Shown in pieces: positions 6,071 through 64,000 of a stretch of 64,000 bases of DNA (position 1 is the first letter of the stretch; each line of letters starts with the position of its first letter). The stretch comes from Crocinitomicaceae bacterium. GTDB lineage: Bacteria > Bacteroidota > Bacteroidia > Flavobacteriales_D > Crocinitomicaceae. The DNA lies in contig JAQWHI010000003.1 in assembly GCA_029249445.1 (NCBI GenBank), forward strand, positions 62,001 through 126,000, in the 5' to 3' direction. Made by a program: the position numbers and the translations under genes. The notes beneath the pieces are model-generated. The model searched no databases and had not been told where the DNA came from. It saw only the letters and a list, made by a program, of their open reading frames with translations.

Positions 6071-6964
6071 CTAATTTAGATCCGTCAATTCAGCACTAGC
6101 TGTTGGGAATTTTCGGTCTACTTTTTTGAACAGTCCTTGCAGGACTTTACCCGGACCTACTTCTACAACTTCTTCAGCTCCATCGGCAATCATTGCATGC
6201 ATTATTTGTGTCCAGCGAACAGGTGCAGTCAACTGTGCCACCAAATTCTTTTTAATTTCTGAGGGATCAATTACAGCTTTTGCTACAACATTTTGATATA
6301 CTGGGCAGGTTGGAGTATCGAATCTAGTTGCCTCAATAGCCGCAGCAAGTTCCTCTCTTGCTGGCTCCATCAAGGGCGAATGAAAAGCACCACCTACAGG
6401 AAGGATTAAAGCTCGTCGCGCTCCAGCCTCTGTTGCCAGTTCACATGCCTTTTCGACAGCGGGAACTGCTCCAGAAATAACCAATTGACCGGGACAATTG
6501 TAGTTTGCTGCAACAACAACACCATCAACTTTGGCACACAACGATTCAACGACATCATCATCCAATCCTAAAATTGCTGCCATGGTAGAAGGTTGATTTT
6601 CACATGCTGCTTGCATTGCAAGAGCGCGTTTCGAGACAAGCCTTAAACCATCCTCAAAACTCAGAGCCTTGTTTGCTACTAAGGAAGAGAACTCGCCCAA
6701 AGAATGTCCCGCGACCATGTTTGGTTTGAAGCCGTCACCCAAACAAGCTGCCAATATTGTAGAGTGCAAAAATATAGCCGGTTGTGTAACTTTGGTTTCT
6801 TTCAACTCATCCGCAGATCCTTCGAACATAATTTTTGTGATGTCAAATCCCAAAATCTCATTCGCGCGATTGAACATTTCTTTTGCTGTATCAGAATTGT
6901 CATAAAGGTCTTTACCCATCCCTGAAAATTGGGCACCTTGACCAGGAAAAACATATGCTTTCAT
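6071..6964 (-). CDS. fabD: Malonyl-CoA:ACP transacylase
   Basis: Transfers malonyl groups from CoA to acyl carrier protein to supply fatty-acid elongation. The 297 residues match the family length. The active-site serine is in VAGHSLGEFSSL (about residue 90), with the oxyanion-loop signature FPGQGAQFSGMGKD at the N-terminus and the catalytic His in GGAFHSPLM (about residue 197). It stands alone on the minus strand with its own terminator. No fab gene is adjacent. Confidence 0.96.
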   Translation of the reverse strand: MKAYVFPGQGAQFSGMGKDLYDNSDTAKEMFNRANEILGFDITKIMFEGSADELKETKVTQPAIFLHSTILAACLGDGFKPNMVAGHSLGEFSSLVANKALSFEDGLRLVSKRALAMQAACENQPSTMAAILGLDDDVVESLCAKVDGVVVAANYNCPGQLVISGAVPAVEKACELATEAGARRALILPVGGAFHSPLMEPAREELAAAIEATRFDTPTCPVYQNVVAKAVIDPSEIKKNLVAQLTAPVRWTQIMHAMIADGAEEVVEVGPGKVLQGLFKKVDRKFPTASAELTDLN

Positions 6965-7097
6965 TTCATCGTTATTTTGGCGTAAAAATAGCGAAAGTTG
7001 TGAATCAAAAACAAAAATTAAACAACACGTGTTAATGGGTGAACAGGTAAGACCATTTTTATGCGTTTCTAAACGCTACACTCAGATCAAAAACGTT

Positions 7098-55837: not shown

Positions 55838-56590
55838 TTACTTTTCTTCTGCTGTAGAAGAAATTGCAAGGCTATAAACAACAAGACCAAATCCAATTTT
55901 GTTTATTGCATCGGCGATGTTGTAGAATAAATCAACTTTAGTTGAATCCCATTCGAGTGCTGTATTCAACCAACCTCCAGGCATACACATGTATCCTATT
56001 GGATAAATTGCCCATCCTACTAAGACGAACCACGCAAGAATACGAACGCTTTTCTTGATGTTCGCATTGTTCGAATTCTCTGCAAGAGTAGCAACTTCTC
56101 CGAACCAGGCAGCATACAAAATATAAATATATCCGAGTGTAGAAAGAACACCGTACATCACTGAGTGTGTTGTTGCCTCGTCAAGCGTTCCACCCTCGTA
56201 AGCTGGGTTGTACGCCTCTCCGATGTAACCAAAAACAAGCATCCAAACTGAAGCAATGATTAACTTCCAAAGAAGTCCCTTCTTCGCTCCTGCCACCTTG
56301 GTTAGCAAGTAGAACTCAACACACATCAATGGAACTGTAAGTGTCCAATCAATGTAACGCAGAGCAGTAGGATTTTCCCCTGTCTCTGCATAAAAATCGC
56401 GCATGTAGTAATAGTGCACAGCGGCGATAAAAGTAATAAGGCCAGAGACAAGCAGAGAAGTTTTCCATTTGTCACTTACACGACTTCGTTCAAAAAAGAA
56501 GAAGACTGAAGCAGCCATCATTGCCATGTAGCCAATAAAGAATGTGAAAGCTACTGGATCCGTCCCGGGATCGGTAATTAGTGATAACAT
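55838..56590 (-). CDS. Proteorhodopsin, light-driven proton pump
   Basis: Seven-helix retinal protein of 250 residues in the inner membrane. Helix C reads RYIDWTLTVPLMCVEFY: Asp81 (Schiff-base counterion), Thr85 and Glu92 form the DTE motif of outward proton pumps. Met89 is at the spectral-tuning position (L or Q in other forms), which predicts green absorption as in other Bacteroidota. Lys231 in helix G (AINKIGFG) binds retinal, with Asp227 as second counterion. His59 matches the conserved helix-B His. It is not an NDQ sodium pump. The gene is alone: no blh (retinal-forming) or carotenoid gene is within the window, so retinal must come from elsewhere. Confidence 0.95.
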   Translation of the reverse strand: MLSLITDPGTDPVAFTFFIGYMAMMAASVFFFFERSRVSDKWKTSLLVSGLITFIAAVHYYYMRDFYAETGENPTALRYIDWTLTVPLMCVEFYLLTKVAGAKKGLLWKLIIASVWMLVFGYIGEAYNPAYEGGTLDEATTHSVMYGVLSTLGYIYILYAAWFGEVATLAENSNNANIKKSVRILAWFVLVGWAIYPIGYMCMPGGWLNTALEWDSTKVDLFYNIADAINKIGFGLVVYSLAISSTAEEK

Positions 56591-59459: not shown

Positions 59460-60629
59460 ATGATAAGTGTCAAAGAGGCTCAAAGTAAAATACAAGAAAA
59501 TAGCCGTATTCTCAATTCTGTCTCCAAGAGTGTAGAAAATGCATTGGATCAAGTTTTATCGGAAGACGTTAAATCTCCAATTCATATGCCTCCATTTTCT
59601 CAATCTGCAATGGATGGCTATGCTATTGGATCACAAGGGAACACTTTCAAACTCGTAGGTGAAATTCAGGCTGGAGCAGACTCATCTGGTATGACACTAA
59701 AAAGTAATGAGGCCGTGCGCATATTCACGGGTGCAATGATTCCTAATGGCACCTTTGCAGTCGCAAAACAAGAAATTGTTGAGAAAAATAAAACAGAAAT
59801 TCGAATCACCGAAAAGCAAAAACATTTACAGAACATACGACCACTCGGTGAGCAGATAAAAAAAGGGGACATCGCACTCCCTAAAGGAACCGTTATTACT
59901 CCGGGAACAGCAGGATTCCTCTACACATTGGGAGTCAACCAGGTCTCCGTAACAAAAAAACCTAATATCATTATTCTGTCAACAGGAAATGAACTTGTTC
60001 CGCCCGGACAAGAACTAAGTCCAGGAAAAATATATGAATCCAATACCTATACACTAAAAACAGCACTCAAGAAATTTAGAATTCAAGTCACAATTAAAAC
60101 TATTGAAGACAACTACGAGGCAACAAAAAAATCCATCCAAGAAAGTTTGAATGAATGTGACATACTCATAACAACCGGTGGAATCTCTGTTGGAGATTAT
60201 GACTTTGTCGGAAAAGCAATGGAGGAGGTCGGAGTAGAATCGATTTTTTATAAAATAAAACAAAAACCTGGAAAACCCATTTTCTTTGGTAAGCGCAATT
60301 CTACGGTCGTTTTTGGACTTCCTGGAAACCCTGCAGCAGCCCTTTCGTGTTTTTATTTATATGTCACCCCAGGAATCAGAAAAATGTGTGGAATTTCAGA
60401 TGTATCTCTTGAAAAAAGAACCCTGAAATTGACTTCTGATTATACAAAATCAAAAAATTTGACCCATTTTTTAAAGGCAAAATGTTACGGCGATAAAGTC
60501 GCAATATTAGGCGCACAGAGCTCTGCAATGCTCAGCTCATTTGCAAGTGCAAACTGTCTTGCGTGCCTTCCCGAAGGTCAATCTGAATGGAAAAAAGGTG
60601 ACGCAATCGAGGTCTATATTTTACCCTAA
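59460..60629 (+). CDS. moeA: Molybdopterin molybdenumtransferase MoeA
   Basis: Inserts molybdate into adenylylated molybdopterin. The protein has 389 residues from the ATG at 59460 (MISVKEAQSKIQENSRIL). Blocks are HMPPFSQSAMDGYAI (about 41-55), RIFTGAMIPNGTFAV (about 86-100), LSTGNELVPPGQEL (about 175-188), TTGGISVGDYDFV (about 236-248) and FFGKRNSTVVFGLPGNPAAALSCFYLYV (about 275-302). The 102 bp before the ATG is likely promoter and leader. First gene of the Moco cluster. Confidence 0.95.
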   Translation: MISVKEAQSKIQENSRILNSVSKSVENALDQVLSEDVKSPIHMPPFSQSAMDGYAIGSQGNTFKLVGEIQAGADSSGMTLKSNEAVRIFTGAMIPNGTFAVAKQEIVEKNKTEIRITEKQKHLQNIRPLGEQIKKGDIALPKGTVITPGTAGFLYTLGVNQVSVTKKPNIIILSTGNELVPPGQELSPGKIYESNTYTLKTALKKFRIQVTIKTIEDNYEATKKSIQESLNECDILITTGGISVGDYDFVGKAMEEVGVESIFYKIKQKPGKPIFFGKRNSTVVFGLPGNPAAALSCFYLYVTPGIRKMCGISDVSLEKRTLKLTSDYTKSKNLTHFLKAKCYGDKVAILGAQSSAMLSSFASANCLACLPEGQSEWKKGDAIEVYILP

Positions 60630-60679: not shown

Positions 60680-60708
60680 TTGTATTGTACATTTAAGCGT
60701 TATCTTTT
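60680..60708 (+). promoter_or_regulatory. Promoter before the ModE-like gene
   Basis: TTG (60680-60682), an 18-nt spacer and TATCTTTT (60701-60708, one mismatch to TAnnTTTG). The -7 element is inside the ModE-like palindrome, so a bound regulator would block it. Confidence 0.5.
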
Positions 60709-60723
60709 TAAAGATATAACGCT
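60696..60723. promoter_or_regulatory. ModE-like operator CGTTAT-N12-ATAACG
   Basis: AGCGTTAT (60696-60703) and ATAACGCT (60716-60723) are exact reverse complements separated by 12 nt. The core CGTTAT-N12-ATAACG has the same half-sites and spacing as the E. coli ModE operator upstream of modA (from memory). The right arm abuts the ATG of the ModE-like gene at 60724. Confidence 0.65.
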
Positions 60724-61071
60724 ATGAGCAAGGTGCCCAAATACAAAATCAAAAGCCGCATTTGGATTACAACAGATGAGGGAACCTTCCTTGGTGCTGG
60801 TCGAATAACCCTTCTTGAAGCAATTGAAACCTATGGATCAATTTCAAAAGCGGCAAAATCAATGAAGATGTCTTACAAAAAAGCTTGGGGACTTGTCAAT
60901 TCGATAAATAGTCAAAGTAAAGAGCCCATTGTGCGACCAATAACAGGAGGGAAAAATGGAGGAGGATCATCGGTTAGTGAAGCAGGGAAAAAAGCAATTT
61001 TACTTTTCAAGAAATTAGATGAAGAAAATAGAATGTTGCTGGATGAAAAAAATAAAAATTTAGACTTTTGA
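60724..61071 (+). CDS. ModE-like winged helix-turn-helix regulator (no MOP domain)
   Basis: DNA-binding protein of 115 residues related to the N-terminal domain of ModE (LysR-like winged HTH). ITLLEAIETYGSISKAAKSMKMSYKKAWGLV (about residues 27-57) is the HTH, followed by the wing, with GGKNGGGSSVSEAGKKAI typical of ModE. E. coli ModE has two C-terminal MOP domains that bind molybdate; these are missing, so it either does not sense molybdate or does so through a partner. It lies inside the Moco cluster, and its stop overlaps the mobA start (TTGA). Confidence 0.9.
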   Translation: MSKVPKYKIKSRIWITTDEGTFLGAGRITLLEAIETYGSISKAAKSMKMSYKKAWGLVNSINSQSKEPIVRPITGGKNGGGSSVSEAGKKAILLFKKLDEENRMLLDEKNKNLDF

Positions 61072-61634
61072 GGATAACGGGAGTCATATTGGCAGGGGGA
61101 AAAAGTTCACGTATGGGCACTGATAAAGGTCTTCTCGAGCTCAATGGACAACTATTAATTCAATATGCAATTGATACCCTGAAATCGATAGGGCTTGAAA
61201 TTATAATTATCTCAAACAATTCGGATTACGAGCAGTTCGGTTTTCCTGTTTATCCAGATATAATTCCAGATAAAGGGCCGATTGGAGGAGTTTATACTGC
61301 ACTCTCATACTCCTCAACCGAAAAGAACTTAATTGTTAGTTGTGACACCCCATTTCTCTCAAAAAAATTATTGAATTATTTAATAGATGCAGCAAAAAAC
61401 AGCAGTATTGCAATTGCTGAGTTTGAAGGAAGGGAGCATCCATTAATTGGAATATATAGCAAACACAGTCGTGATACTTTTAAATTATACTTAGATAGAA
61501 ATGATCTTAAGCTTCAAAATGCGAACAAAGCATTGAATGCAGATGTTGTCTCTCTCACTATGCACCCAGAAGTTAAGTCGATAATGTTCAGCAACCTAAA
61601 TACAACAGAGGAATTTAAACGTTTGGAATTATGA
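61068..61634 (+). CDS. mobA: Molybdenum cofactor guanylyltransferase MobA
   Basis: Adds GMP to Moco to make the MGD form. The 188 residues have the NTP-binding loop ILAGGKSSRMGTDKGLLELNGQ (N-terminus, about 7-28, cited as a landmark), IPDKGPIGGVYTAL (about 65-78) and VSCDTPFLSKKLLNYL (about 88-103). The start is a TTG at 61068 overlapping the previous stop; no closer ATG is available. Its presence implies bis-MGD enzymes such as DMSO-reductase-family proteins elsewhere in the genome. Confidence 0.92.
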   Translation: MRITGVILAGGKSSRMGTDKGLLELNGQLLIQYAIDTLKSIGLEIIIISNNSDYEQFGFPVYPDIIPDKGPIGGVYTALSYSSTEKNLIVSCDTPFLSKKLLNYLIDAAKNSSIAIAEFEGREHPLIGIYSKHSRDTFKLYLDRNDLKLQNANKALNADVVSLTMHPEVKSIMFSNLNTTEEFKRLEL

Positions 61635-61870
61635 TTGTTGATGTTCATTACTTTGGAATGATTTCCGATCGGTTGGGAAGGTCAACAGAACAGCATACTT
61701 TTGACAACTCATCAAAAGAAATCAACTTGCGTTCTTATTTTGAACACCGTTTCCCCGAACTAAAGGAAATGAGTTTTAAAATTGCTATTAACCAGGAGCT
61801 AAGAGATGTACTTTACTCCAAAGAATCAATTCATGAAATTGCGTTATTGCCCCCATTTGCTGGTGGCTAA
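61631..61870 (+). CDS. moaD: Molybdopterin synthase sulfur carrier subunit MoaD
   Basis: Ubiquitin-like sulfur carrier of 79 residues. It ends in LLPPFAGG, the Gly-Gly tail that is adenylated by MoeB and converted to thiocarboxylate. The remainder shows the beta-grasp pattern (VDVHYFGMISDRLG, ...LRSYFEHRFPELK). Its start overlaps mobA by 4 nt. Confidence 0.94.
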   Translation: MIVDVHYFGMISDRLGRSTEQHTFDNSSKEINLRSYFEHRFPELKEMSFKIAINQELRDVLYSKESIHEIALLPPFAGG

Positions 61871-61878
61871 AAAAAGTT

Positions 61879-62979
61879 ATGCTAAGTCAAATAGAACAGG
61901 ATACATACAGCCGACATTTACTTTTAGATGAAATTGGTGTCGAAGGCCAGATCAAACTCAAACACGCACGAGTTTTAGTAATTGGCGCTGGAGGATTGGG
62001 ATGTCCTGTGCTCCAGTATTTATGTGCGGCAGGAGTTGGGACAATTGGAATCTCAGACCATGATGTTGTTGAAACCTCAAACCTACACAGACAGATTCTA
62101 TTTGGAACCTCATCAATAGGAAAATCAAAAGCACTCGAAGCAAAAAAACGATTACTAGAAATGAATCCATCCGTTGAAATCAACTCTTACACAGACGGTA
62201 CAACTATTCATTCAATTGAAACACAACTATCAAAATACGATTGGATTGTCGACTGCACAGACAATTACCAGACGAGATACTTAATAAACGATGCATGTGT
62301 ACTGTACAACAAAACACTCATCTACGCTGCTATCTATAAGTTCGAAGGTCAAGTTTCGGTATTCAACCACAATCAAGGACCAACCTACCGTTGTATATAT
62401 CCTGAACGACCAAGTGCATCAGCAACAACAAACTGCTCAGAAAGCGGAGTCCTTGGTGTCTTGCCAGGCATGATTGGTACACTTCAAGCCAATGAAGTCT
62501 TAAAACTTATTCTAGAAATCGGAAGTCCGCTGAGCGGTAAACTCCTTCTTTTTAATGCATTAAATAACAAATCAAATGTATTTACTATTTCGAAAACGAA
62601 CCCTGAAATATACGAACACATTAAAATAAATGGGCTCAACGCTGAGGCCTACAAAATACATTGTAAAACAATGAATACCAAACGTATTACTCTTGTTGAT
62701 TTTTTAAAAAATCCTTCTTCATTTGAACAGATTATCGATGTTCGAGAGTACCATGAAACACCCGATATGAGTGATCTATCGACACTTCATATCCCATTGT
62801 CTGATTTTGAAAGTCAAATCCATAAGATCAACCCTACGAAAAAAACGCTCGTTTTTTGTCAAAAAGGAATTCGAAGTCAAATGGCAATAGACGTTTTACA
62901 ACAAAATGGATCATTTAATGCTTTGTATAATCTCAGTGGAGGCGTTTATCTCTACCAAAAACAAAAAAGTACATTATGA
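61879..62979 (+). CDS. moeB: MoeB/ThiF-family adenylyltransferase with rhodanese domain
   Basis: Activates MoaD by adenylation and probably transfers sulfur. The 366 residues have an E1-like domain (about 1-240): RHLLLDEIGVEGQIKLKHARVLVIGAGGLGCPV, DHDVVETSNLHRQILF, DCTDNYQTRYLINDAC, then TTNCSESGVLGVLPGMIG (landmarks only). The Zn-binding CxxC pairs of E. coli MoeB are not preserved (TYRC in place of CYRC, and no second pair). A rhodanese-like C-terminal domain (about 275-366) has the active-site loop FCQKGIRSQ. The fusion supplies the sulfur-transfer step in one protein. Confidence 0.9.
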   Translation: MLSQIEQDTYSRHLLLDEIGVEGQIKLKHARVLVIGAGGLGCPVLQYLCAAGVGTIGISDHDVVETSNLHRQILFGTSSIGKSKALEAKKRLLEMNPSVEINSYTDGTTIHSIETQLSKYDWIVDCTDNYQTRYLINDACVLYNKTLIYAAIYKFEGQVSVFNHNQGPTYRCIYPERPSASATTNCSESGVLGVLPGMIGTLQANEVLKLILEIGSPLSGKLLLFNALNNKSNVFTISKTNPEIYEHIKINGLNAEAYKIHCKTMNTKRITLVDFLKNPSSFEQIIDVREYHETPDMSDLSTLHIPLSDFESQIHKINPTKKTLVFCQKGIRSQMAIDVLQQNGSFNALYNLSGGVYLYQKQKSTL

Positions 62980-63404
62980 AAAACTGCTTCAGAGAAGGCT
63001 CTATTGCTTCTGATTTTATCGCTACTTCAATTGCACACCACCAAGTAAAAACAAACATTGGCGCGCATCAAATATTTTTAGGACAAGTACGAGCTGACCA
63101 AGTTGATGAAAAAGAGGTTAGGGCAATAGAATATTCTGCACATGAGGAAATGGCCAATAAAGCCTTTCATGTCATCCGTGAAGGCACCTTTGAAAAATTT
63201 GACTTGACCTGTATGCATATTTATCACAGTATTGGTGAAGTGAAAGCCGGAGAAATTTGTTTGTTTGTGTTCGTATCCTCCAAACATAGGAAAGAAGTAC
63301 AACGTGCAATTGAATTTGTAGTTGAGGCGATAAAGGAGAAGGTCCCTATATTCGGGAAAGAACTCTTTGAGGATGGAAGCTATGTACATAAAGTAAATAC
63401 TTAA
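62976..63404 (+). CDS. moaE: Molybdopterin synthase catalytic subunit MoaE
   Basis: Large subunit that turns precursor Z (cPMP) into molybdopterin using MoaD thiocarboxylate. The 142 residues show FLGQVRADQVDEKEVRAIEYSAHEEMA (about 30-56), HIYHSIGEVKAGEICLFVFVSS and the Lys-rich KHRKEVQRAIEFVVEAIKEKVPIFGKELFEDG active-site block (about 108-138). Overlaps moeB by 4 nt. Confidence 0.94.
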   Translation: MKNCFREGSIASDFIATSIAHHQVKTNIGAHQIFLGQVRADQVDEKEVRAIEYSAHEEMANKAFHVIREGTFEKFDLTCMHIYHSIGEVKAGEICLFVFVSSKHRKEVQRAIEFVVEAIKEKVPIFGKELFEDGSYVHKVNT

Positions 63405-63408
63405 GGAG

Positions 63409-64000
63409 ATGGTAGAGATTACTCAAAAAAATACTACACTCCGAACCGCAATCGCTCAGGCAATTGTTCAAGTCAGCTCTGAAAAAACAATTCACGCAAT
63501 CACAAATGATGCTGTTCCGAAAGGGAACGTATTCGAAATGGCAAAAACTGCGGGATTGTTTGCCGTAAAGAAGACATCCGATATAATTCCAGACTGCCAT
63601 CCTTTGCCTATAGAATATACAGGTGTTGACTATGAAATTGATGGACTCCAAATTAAAATCCGAATTGAAGTCAAGACAATCTATAGAACCGGTGTAGAAG
63701 TTGAAGCAATGCATGGCGCTAGTGTAATTGCCCTAACTATGTACGACATGCTCAAACCAATTGACAAGGGAATTGAGATTCAAAATGTGAAACTTATAGC
63801 GAAGAAAGGAGGTAAATCCGACTTCAAAGACCGATTCAGAAAAGACTTAAGAGCTGCAGTATTTGTTTGTTCAGATACAATTGCAGCAGGTCAAAAAGAG
63901 GACAAAGCAGGAAAAGCAATTATTAAAAAATTAGAAGAATCCTCGGTCTCAATAGCGCAATACCACGTAATACCAGATGAAATCGAGGAAATACAAGCAG
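63409..64000 (+). CDS. moaC: MoaC-MoaB/MogA fusion (partial at window end)
   Basis: The frame from ATG 63409 stays open to the window edge (197 complete codons). Residues about 1-145 are cyclic pyranopterin monophosphate synthase MoaC: MAKTAGLFAVKKTSDIIPDCHPLPIEYTG and VEVEAMHGASVIALTMYDMLKPID (landmarks). From about residue 150 the sequence becomes MoaB/MogA-like (RAAVFVCSDTIAAGQKEDKAGKAIIKKLEE), the domain that adenylates molybdopterin before MoeA. So it is a bifunctional MoaCB protein. It starts 4 nt after moaE. A GGAG is adjacent to the ATG. Confidence 0.9.
   Translation, partial: MVEITQKNTTLRTAIAQAIVQVSSEKTIHAITNDAVPKGNVFEMAKTAGLFAVKKTSDIIPDCHPLPIEYTGVDYEIDGLQIKIRIEVKTIYRTGVEVEAMHGASVIALTMYDMLKPIDKGIEIQNVKLIAKKGGKSDFKDRFRKDLRAAVFVCSDTIAAGQKEDKAGKAIIKKLEESSVSIAQYHVIPDEIEEIQA

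What the first reader, a model, noticed from the sequence alone, without database searches (positions are those of the whole stretch)
60680..61071. ModE-like palindrome over the promoter of a ModE homologue that lacks molybdate-binding domains
The palindrome CGTTAT-N12-ATAACG (60698-60721) has the same half-sites and spacing as the E. coli ModE operator at modA as I remember it. It overlaps a good Bacteroidota -7 box (TATCTTTT) and abuts the ATG of a 115-residue ModE-type HTH protein. This suggests autoregulation by a regulator lacking the MOP domains that sense molybdate, so the signal may be different or supplied by another protein. By my rough estimate an exact 12-base match of this type is expected well under once in 64 kb of AT-rich DNA. 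It may be a conserved but undescribed Moco regulon in Bacteroidota.
Basis: partly seen in the sequence, partly recalled or inferred. Interest (0 to 1): 0.72.

Follow-up and report, generated by a model that had tools for sequence, protein, structure and literature searches.

The report
Self-controlled molybdenum-cofactor operon in Bacteroidota
A small DNA-binding protein related to the E. coli molybdenum regulator, but without its metal-sensing half, appears to sit on an E. coli-type binding site at the start of its own molybdenum-cofactor operon, and in the relatives examined the protein and the site are kept or lost together.

Summary
The palindrome is real: CGTTAT-N12-ATAACG at 60698-60721, with 8-bp arms reaching 60696-60723, ending at the ATG of a 115-aa ModE-type winged-helix protein. 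E. coli K-12 modA carries the same half-sites and spacing. In the own genome the gene heads a Moco operon (modE*-mobA-moaD-moeB-moaE-moaCB-moaA, moeA just upstream). The site recurs at all 17 modE* genes found in 34 genus genomes. In 7 genus genomes with moeA next to mobA but no modE*, it is absent. A matrix from 29 sites, mostly Flavobacteriales, finds sites in 21 of 27 loci titled as other orders (0 of 27 reversed). Outside the genus it also marks moeA, TauE/SafE and TonB-receptor genes. The -7 box probably lies just upstream (TACATTTA), not inside the palindrome. I infer an autorepressor acting at the transcription start. No MOP domain or ModA was detected in the genome, so the signal is unknown. 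DNA-binding-domain-only ModE proteins are known (Desulfovibrio, C. jejuni); what I did not find in an open-licence library is a Bacteroidota regulon with the E. coli-type operator and autogenous control of Moco synthesis. Binding and repression were not tested.

The parts
60688..60695 (+). TACATTTA, probable Bacteroidota -7 box directly 5' of the operator
   Evidence: TAnnTTT starting 7-16 nt before the operator in 26 of 80 non-identical site-start pairs against 15 of 320 control windows, Fisher p=1e-10, not corrected for relatedness. Its role as a promoter box is inferred; the -7 consensus is recalled.
60696..60723 (.). operator: AGCGTTAT-N12-ATAACGCT; E. coli ModE-type core CGTTAT-N12-ATAACG at 60698-60721
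   Evidence: Same half-sites and spacing as E. coli modA. Conserved at orthologues.
60724..61071 (+). modE*: 115-aa ModE-type winged-helix DNA-binding protein without MOP domains
   Evidence: TIGR00637 E=3.6e-23; PDB 2ijl 1.5e-14 and 1b9m 1.9e-12 by sequence; AlphaFold2 mean pLDDT 89.9; Foldseek best hit E. coli ModE, TMq 0.76.
59460..60629 (+). moeA, molybdopterin molybdotransferase, upstream of the operator
   Evidence: Pfam MoeA_N, MoCF_biosynth, MoeA_C (searched from 59454; the ATG at 59460 is read from the ORF).
61068..61634 (+). mobA, overlaps the end of modE*
   Evidence: PF12804 3.4e-37; MobA NCBIfam 4.8e-43, under its cut-off.
61631..61870 (+). moaD, 79 aa ending in GG
   Evidence: ORF; PF02597 E=0.0048, below Pfam's cut-off; C-terminal GG, and a moaD match next to mobA in 19 of the 21 loci (not in L083, L085).
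61879..62979 (+). moeB with C-terminal rhodanese domain
   Evidence: ThiF 7.6e-80, Rhodanese 8.8e-5.
62976..63404 (+). moaE
   Evidence: PF02391 4.8e-25.
63409..64000 (+). moaCB, continues past the window; moaA follows outside it (L005 5340-6341)
   Evidence: MoaC 3.5e-45; rest of the operon read in L005.

Best explanation
modE* encodes a dimeric winged-helix repressor that is only the DNA-binding half of ModE. It binds the 24-28 bp operator that begins just downstream of the -7 box and ends at its own start codon, so it covers the transcription start and blocks RNA polymerase. Because modE* is the first gene after the operator, the protein sets the level of the whole Moco biosynthesis operon by negative feedback on itself. 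Shown here by computation: the site, its E. coli-type half-sites and spacing, the ModE fold, the gene order, conservation at orthologues, and joint presence or absence of gene and site. Inferred: that the genes are one transcript, that ModE* binds the site, that binding represses, that it is a dimer. Open: the signal. No MOP-domain protein was detected in the genome, so the likeliest possibilities are plain level-setting without a ligand, or release through a partner protein or a Moco intermediate. In other Bacteroidota the same operator also precedes moeA, TauE/SafE-family carriers and TonB-dependent receptors, which suggests a wider molybdenum regulon there.
For: Exact palindrome abutting the ATG. 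Same element at E. coli modA. ModE-type fold and sequence, with SYK.AW around the recognition helix shared with E. coli ModE (the helix's role is recalled). Site at the start of all 17 modE* genes found in the genus, 18 of 21 in the first relatives set. In the moeA-mobA interval (18 loci) or upstream of mobA (2 loci), 20 of 20 modE* loci hold a stretch matching 10-12 of 12 fixed bases, while 7 of 7 intervals without modE* score 6-9 and are only 7-32 bp long. Interval length differs, so as a control random 450-nt stretches of modE*-less loci reach 10 of 12 in 7 of 400 and 11 in 0 of 400; and the whole fetched loci of those seven genomes hold no matrix site of 14 bits or more (best 13.6). On a moaCB tree of 28 rows presence of modE* needs 6 changes, at least 3 forced by well-supported branches, so gene and site seem to have come or gone together more than once. 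In the genus, exact CGTTRT-N12-ATARCG occurs at 35 places in 34 genomes, 14 of them modE* starts; the other 21 are at the level of the reversed pattern (28 forward matches), and of 16 of those 21 examined 14 lie inside long ORFs. Matrix sites of at least 16 bits: 21 of 27 loci of other orders, 0 of 27 reversed; 18 of 29 in a class search, 0 of 29 reversed. Position: median 6.5 nt from operator end to start codon over 80 pairs, -7 box just upstream.
Against: No binding or expression data. 11 of the 29 class-search loci and 9 of 68 Bacteroidota or unassigned loci (five Runella, both Bacteroidales-titled ones among them) show no site of at least 16 bits in the DNA held. L079 is weak, L083 has a site only at the next gene, and L085 lies outside a Moco locus with none. 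Ten genus genomes have moaA above cut-off and no modE* found, so regulation looks dispensable. In the genus, modA loci carry no site (8 loci). Training sites and conserved loci are related, so the counts are not independent events. In a 2700-nt stretch 10 of 12 is not rare by chance (50 of 400), which weakens L080's and L083's long intervals taken alone.
Confidence: 0.78

Rival explanations
1. ModE* is an activator or dual regulator: bound at the site it raises transcription of the Moco operon, as E. coli ModE is recorded as a dual regulator.
For: E. coli modE is annotated as a dual regulator. The proteins are homologous.
Against: The site lies between the -7 box and the start codon, median 6.5 nt before it, a place where a bound protein is expected to block rather than recruit polymerase. 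That inference depends on the promoter being where I put it.
Confidence: 0.12
2. The palindrome works as an RNA hairpin in the leader that hides the start codon, with no DNA-binding protein involved.
For: The 41-nt RNA folds better than its shuffles (z=-3.0). At one spacer pair (positions 8 and 17 of the 24-mer) 2 of 29 sites have C-G in place of T-A.
Against: With 71 nt z is -1.0, -1.5 and -0.7 in the three genomes tried. All six arm pairs are standard in only 19 of 29 sites, and within those six pairs changes break the pair or leave G-U, none compensatory. The conserved letters equal the E. coli ModE DNA element. The site is gone where the regulator gene is absent.
Confidence: 0.04
3. ModE* senses molybdate or tungstate through a separate MOP (molbindin) protein or an unrecognised pocket of its own.
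For: C. jejuni ModE lacks the metal-binding domain and is proposed to be the DNA-binding subunit of a complex (passage of PMC7011364, citing Taveirne 2009). In Desulfovibrio separate MOP-containing proteins occur and the sensing mechanism was called unclear (PMC545781 passages).
Against: No PF03459 hit in this genome and 1 of 34 in the genus, while the same search rings in 12 of 14 control genomes. Among 19 aligned homologues no Cys or His is invariant. The genome is 94% complete, and the second TOBE family (PF08402) was not searched.
Confidence: 0.3
4. The site is the operator of another regulator, and the neighbouring modE* is incidental.
For: Nothing specific; binding was not tested.
Against: Joint presence and absence of modE* and site, the E. 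coli ModE-type letters, and no excess of sites away from modE* in the genus.
Confidence: 0.04

Closest known systems
E. coli ModE and its modA operator
   Same: DNA-binding domain fold and sequence; half-sites and N12 spacing; link to molybdenum.
   Different: No MOP domains; heads a Moco biosynthesis operon and not modABC; site at its own start codon; no ModA detected in this genome.
DNA-binding-domain-only ModE of Desulfovibrio (PMC545781, passages)
   Same: Single ModE DNA-binding domain tied to molybdenum genes; sensing unexplained.
   Different: Predicted operator there is CGGTCACG-N14-CGTGACCG upstream of molybdate transport operons; here the operator is E. coli-type and lies on the Moco operon.
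C. jejuni ModE, Cj1507c (Taveirne 2009, known to me here only through the passage of PMC7011364)
   Same: Lacks the metal-binding domain; reported repressor.
   Different: Targets there are the transporters modABC and tunABC; autogenous control of Moco synthesis is not mentioned in that passage.
Agrobacterium putative ModE, PDB 2ijl
   Same: One domain, chain of 135 aa, TM-scores 0.75 and 0.79 to the model.
   Different: Another phylum; its operator is not known to me.

Membership tests
ModE (full-length molybdate-responsive regulator) | N-terminal winged-helix domain homologous to ModE | tested here: met
   TIGR00637 3.6e-23, though 81.5 bits is under the curated 98.5; PDB hits; fold.
ModE (full-length molybdate-responsive regulator) | C-terminal tandem MOP (TOBE) molybdate-binding domains | tested here: not met
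   115 aa, no MOP hit; E. coli ModE aligns only over its first part.
ModE (full-length molybdate-responsive regulator) | Binding element CGnTAT-N12-ATAnCG | tested here: met
   The element is present and conserved; binding itself was not tested.
ModE (full-length molybdate-responsive regulator) | Controls modABC | tested here: not met
   No ModA found in the own genome; no site at 8 modA loci of the genus. Elsewhere a ModA-type gene lies second after a site in L144.
ModE (full-length molybdate-responsive regulator) | Molybdate-dependent DNA binding | not testable with these tools
   Needs gel shift or reporter.
DNA-binding-domain-only ModE-like regulators | Single ModE-type DNA-binding domain | tested here: met
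DNA-binding-domain-only ModE-like regulators | Gene tied to molybdenum genes | tested here: met
   20 of 21 loci (own included) have moe/moa genes beside it.
DNA-binding-domain-only ModE-like regulators | Acts as a repressor | not testable with these tools
   Inferred from site position only.

The most novel reading that the evidence does not exclude
A Bacteroidota-wide molybdenum regulon run by a sensor-less ModE: the same E. coli-type operator controls Moco synthesis, TauE/SafE-family carriers and TonB-dependent receptors. That would imply energised outer-membrane uptake of molybdate or a molybdophore, and a repressor that reads a cytoplasmic Moco intermediate, a partner protein or simply its own amount in place of molybdate.
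Probability: 0.3. Interest if true: 0.68.

Novelty: new variant of a known kind. Interest (0 to 1): 0.5.

Why it matters
Molybdenum control in Bacteroidota seems little described in the papers I could search. Here is a regulator-operator pair that keeps the E. coli ModE specificity across phyla while the sensing half is absent, and that sits on cofactor synthesis rather than metal uptake. It makes a definite question testable: what does a MOP-less ModE respond to. The same operator also points to candidate molybdenum-uptake genes (TonB receptors, TauE/SafE carriers) in other Bacteroidota.

Tried and rejected
Site at modA in the genus: 8 modA loci (about 1.5 kb each side) scanned, best 9.2 bits, no operator. 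Operator near the own genome's one PF00384 enzyme: none of at least 13 bits in 16 kb. Wider regulon inside the genus: the 21 exact matches away from modE* are no more than the reversed pattern gives; 16 of the 21 had DNA at hand and 14 of these lie inside long ORFs. The two that do not are L030 and the window's second near-match (6970-6993, 14.7 bits), see Noticed in passing.

A strict pattern over 395 class genomes found 1 genome only, too strict to be useful; it did not hit the own genome either. The 16-base E. coli consensus alone separates less well than the matrix: at least 14 of 16 in 33 of 68 Bacteroidota or unassigned loci against 4 of 68 reversed, and in 6 of 29 against 0 of 29 in the class search. 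RNA hairpin considered and rejected. Full-length ModE loci of the phylum (the 30 best-scoring) also carry some such sites: 12 of 30 with at least 14 bits, 0 of 30 reversed; I read these as probably green sulphur bacteria, an inference from genome size and numbers. Twelve loci titled as other phyla: 1 of 12 with a site, at 16.0 bits. Papers PMC7435645, PMC6147048, PMC10609526: term passages looked at, nothing on the ModE protein (the hits were the word 'mode' or other terms); PMC7759655 gave only a citation and PMC4139814 the general ModE mechanism and a citation. Studholme and Pau 2003 was not held; only its title was seen, in the reference list of PMC545781. The 27 hold-out loci were picked by record title after I had seen the scan; L100, titled Chitinophaga pinensis, was among the training loci and is not in the 27.

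Full report
What is there. The window holds CGTTAT-N12-ATAACG at 60698-60721, the only exact copy in the window and in the 2.33 Mb genome (4 more places at one mismatch, against 9 for the reversed pattern). The arms are really 8 bp, AGCGTTAT...ATAACGCT (60696-60723), and the next base starts the ATG of a 115-residue ORF. By base composition the exact 12-base form is expected 0.007 times in 64 kb, an after-the-fact number. At two mismatches the window has nothing unusual (3 found, 2.04 expected). The E. coli K-12 modA upstream region, fetched as a check, has an exact match with the same spacing.

The protein. TIGR00637 (ModE DNA-binding domain) matches residues 23-109 with E=3.6e-23, but 81.5 bits is under the curated 98.5. 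No Pfam family passes its cut-off. By sequence the nearest solved structures are 2ijl (a putative ModE from Agrobacterium, one domain) and E. coli ModE. An AlphaFold2 model (mean pLDDT 89.9) has E. coli ModE as best Foldseek hit (TMq 0.76) and 2ijl at 0.75/0.79. It has no MOP domain. Among 19 aligned homologues the invariant residues contain no Cys or His.

The operon. Downstream lie mobA, moaD, moeB-rhodanese, moaE, moaCB and, past the window, moaA; moeA is just upstream. Moe/moa genes surround modE* in 20 of 21 loci including the own genome. That they form one transcript is inferred from spacing. The own genome has no PF03459 (TOBE/MOP) hit, against 12 of 14 control genomes, no ModA, no PF02738 enzyme and one PF00384 enzyme, whose neighbours read like fdhD and a NuoF-type subunit of a formate dehydrogenase (ORFs; names recalled). 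The genome is about 94% complete, so single absences are not proof; genus-wide, PF03459 occurs in 1 of 34 and ModA in 7 of 34.

Conservation. Of 99 genomes searched, 21 have modE* (17 of the 34 genus genomes, own included). A loose form of the palindrome lies at the start of 18 of these 21 genes, all 17 in the genus. The aligned proteins are 37-58% identical to the query; the flanks listed differ by eye, which I did not measure. Over 29 distinct sites the half-sites are nearly fixed, with an E. coli-like interior.

Natural control. In seven genus genomes moeA and mobA are neighbours without modE*. The gap is 7-32 bp and its best score to the fixed palindrome is 6-9 of 12. In 20 modE* loci the best score is 10-12 of 12 (18 with moeA in view, 2 without). 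The modE* intervals are longer (334-2643 bp), so chance was checked: random 450-nt stretches of the modE*-less loci reach 10 of 12 in 7 of 400 and 11 in none, while 2700-nt stretches reach 10 in 50 of 400. The whole fetched loci of the seven genomes have no matrix site of 14 bits or more, best 13.6. Six more loci fetched around a moaA had no mobA in view and could not be judged; two of them are from one genome and one is from a genome that has modE* elsewhere. On a moaCB tree (28 rows, 12 of 25 inner branches open, two long branches) presence of modE* needs 6 changes, at least 3 forced by well-supported branches; one of the 8 rows without modE* is a locus that could not be judged for the site. 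Ten genus genomes have moaA over the cut-off and no modE* found, so the regulator looks dispensable.

Regulon size. In the genus, exact CGTTRT-N12-ATARCG occurs at 35 distinct places in 34 genomes, 14 of them modE* starts. The other 21 are no more than the reversed-pattern control gives (28 forward matches); 16 of the 21 were looked at and 14 lie inside long ORFs. So I see one clear target in this genus, the Moco operon itself, plus one weak candidate in the window (before fabD, below). Outside the genus a matrix from the 29 sites finds more. In named genome contigs (the best 80 of 403 relatives) 59 of 68 Bacteroidota or unassigned loci have a site of at least 16 bits, 0 of 68 reversed; this includes training loci. 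Of the 27 loci titled as Cytophagales, Chitinophagales or Sphingobacteriales genera or families that gave no training site, 21 have one, against 0 of 27 reversed (chosen by title after the scan; L100, titled Chitinophaga, was a training locus). In a class search (63 of 395 genomes with modE*) the 29 best-scoring loci other than the own one give 18 of 29 against 0 of 29; some of these genomes may recur among the named contigs. Of 88 distinct sites, 82 have a recognised gene starting within 140 nt or overlapping them: modE* 38, TonB-dependent receptor 15, moeA 10, TauE/SafE 10, unknown 5, hemerythrin-domain protein beside moaA 2, Oxidored_molyb 1, MauG 1 (families of example proteins). These count sites, and some receptor genes have two.

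Promoter geometry. Over 80 non-identical site-start pairs (start codons chosen by script, a few sites counted on both strands) the operator ends a median 6.5 nt before the start codon. TAnnTTT begins 7-16 nt before the operator in 26 of 80, against 15 of 320 control windows (Fisher p=1e-10, not corrected for relatedness). Here that is TACATTTA at 60688-60695. With the -7 box directly upstream, the start of transcription would fall in the operator, which fits repression by blocking.

RNA alternative. The leader can form a hairpin, but only the shortest fragment beats its shuffles clearly, and the changes in the six arm pairs across 29 sites are not compensatory (one spacer pair shows C-G for T-A in 2 of 29).

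What is known. PMC545781 (passages) gives the E. coli ModE consensus ATCGNTATATA-N6-TATATANCGAT, reports DNA-binding-domain-only ModE in two Desulfovibrio species and D. psychrophila, predicts a different operator for the two Desulfovibrio, and calls the sensing unclear. PMC7011364 (passages) says that C. jejuni ModE lacks the metal-binding domain and represses modABC and tunABC, citing Taveirne 2009, which I did not see. Ten searches of an open-licence library listed no account of this Bacteroidota regulon; the library lacks most subscription journals, and 'ModE' cannot be told from 'mode'.

Verdict. It is filed as a DNA-binding-domain-only ModE-like regulator, not as ModE proper, because the MOP domains and modABC control were tested and not found here. 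Binding, repression and the signal remain to be shown.

Noticed in passing
window 6970-6993, upstream of 6071-6964 minus strand: A weaker site (CGTTATTTTGGCGTAAAAATAGCG, 14.7 bits) lies outside ORFs, 5 nt before the ATG of fabD (TIGR00128, 4e-98), the same spacing as at modE*. It may be a second target or chance; conservation at fabD was not tested.
   Followed up: partly
L107 7241 and 7331, L111, L115, L121, L124 (Emticicia and Cytophagaceae titles): Two operator copies 88-90 bp apart at the start of a TonB-dependent receptor gene divergent from a TauE/SafE-type gene; a candidate outer-membrane molybdenum uptake pair.
   Followed up: partly
L083, L109, L142, L218, L228 and others, next to modE*: A TauE/SafE-family carrier gene (about 245 aa) with its own operator lies beside modE* in a number of loci (10 sites) and may be an oxyanion carrier.
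   Followed up: partly
L131 6445-7062, L149 6428-7027, L163 6392-7045: About 200-aa protein with an N-terminal hydrophobic stretch, no NCBIfam hit for the three and no Pfam hit for the first two, right after modE* and an operator of 29-32 bits.
   Followed up: partly
L100 761-784 and L101 573-596: A second operator in front of a hemerythrin-domain protein gene followed by moaA, about 5 kb from the modE* operator.
   Followed up: no
L101 6001-6285 (same gene in L081): modE* with an internal deletion over the wing (94 aa), beside a still recognisable operator (24.9 bits).
   Followed up: no
window 55838-56590, minus strand: Bacteriorhodopsin-family gene (PF01036, 1e-40), a putative light-driven pump.
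   Followed up: no
L211 7893-8890 (G007): moaA is matched in two overlapping pieces, a frameshift or assembly error.
   Followed up: no
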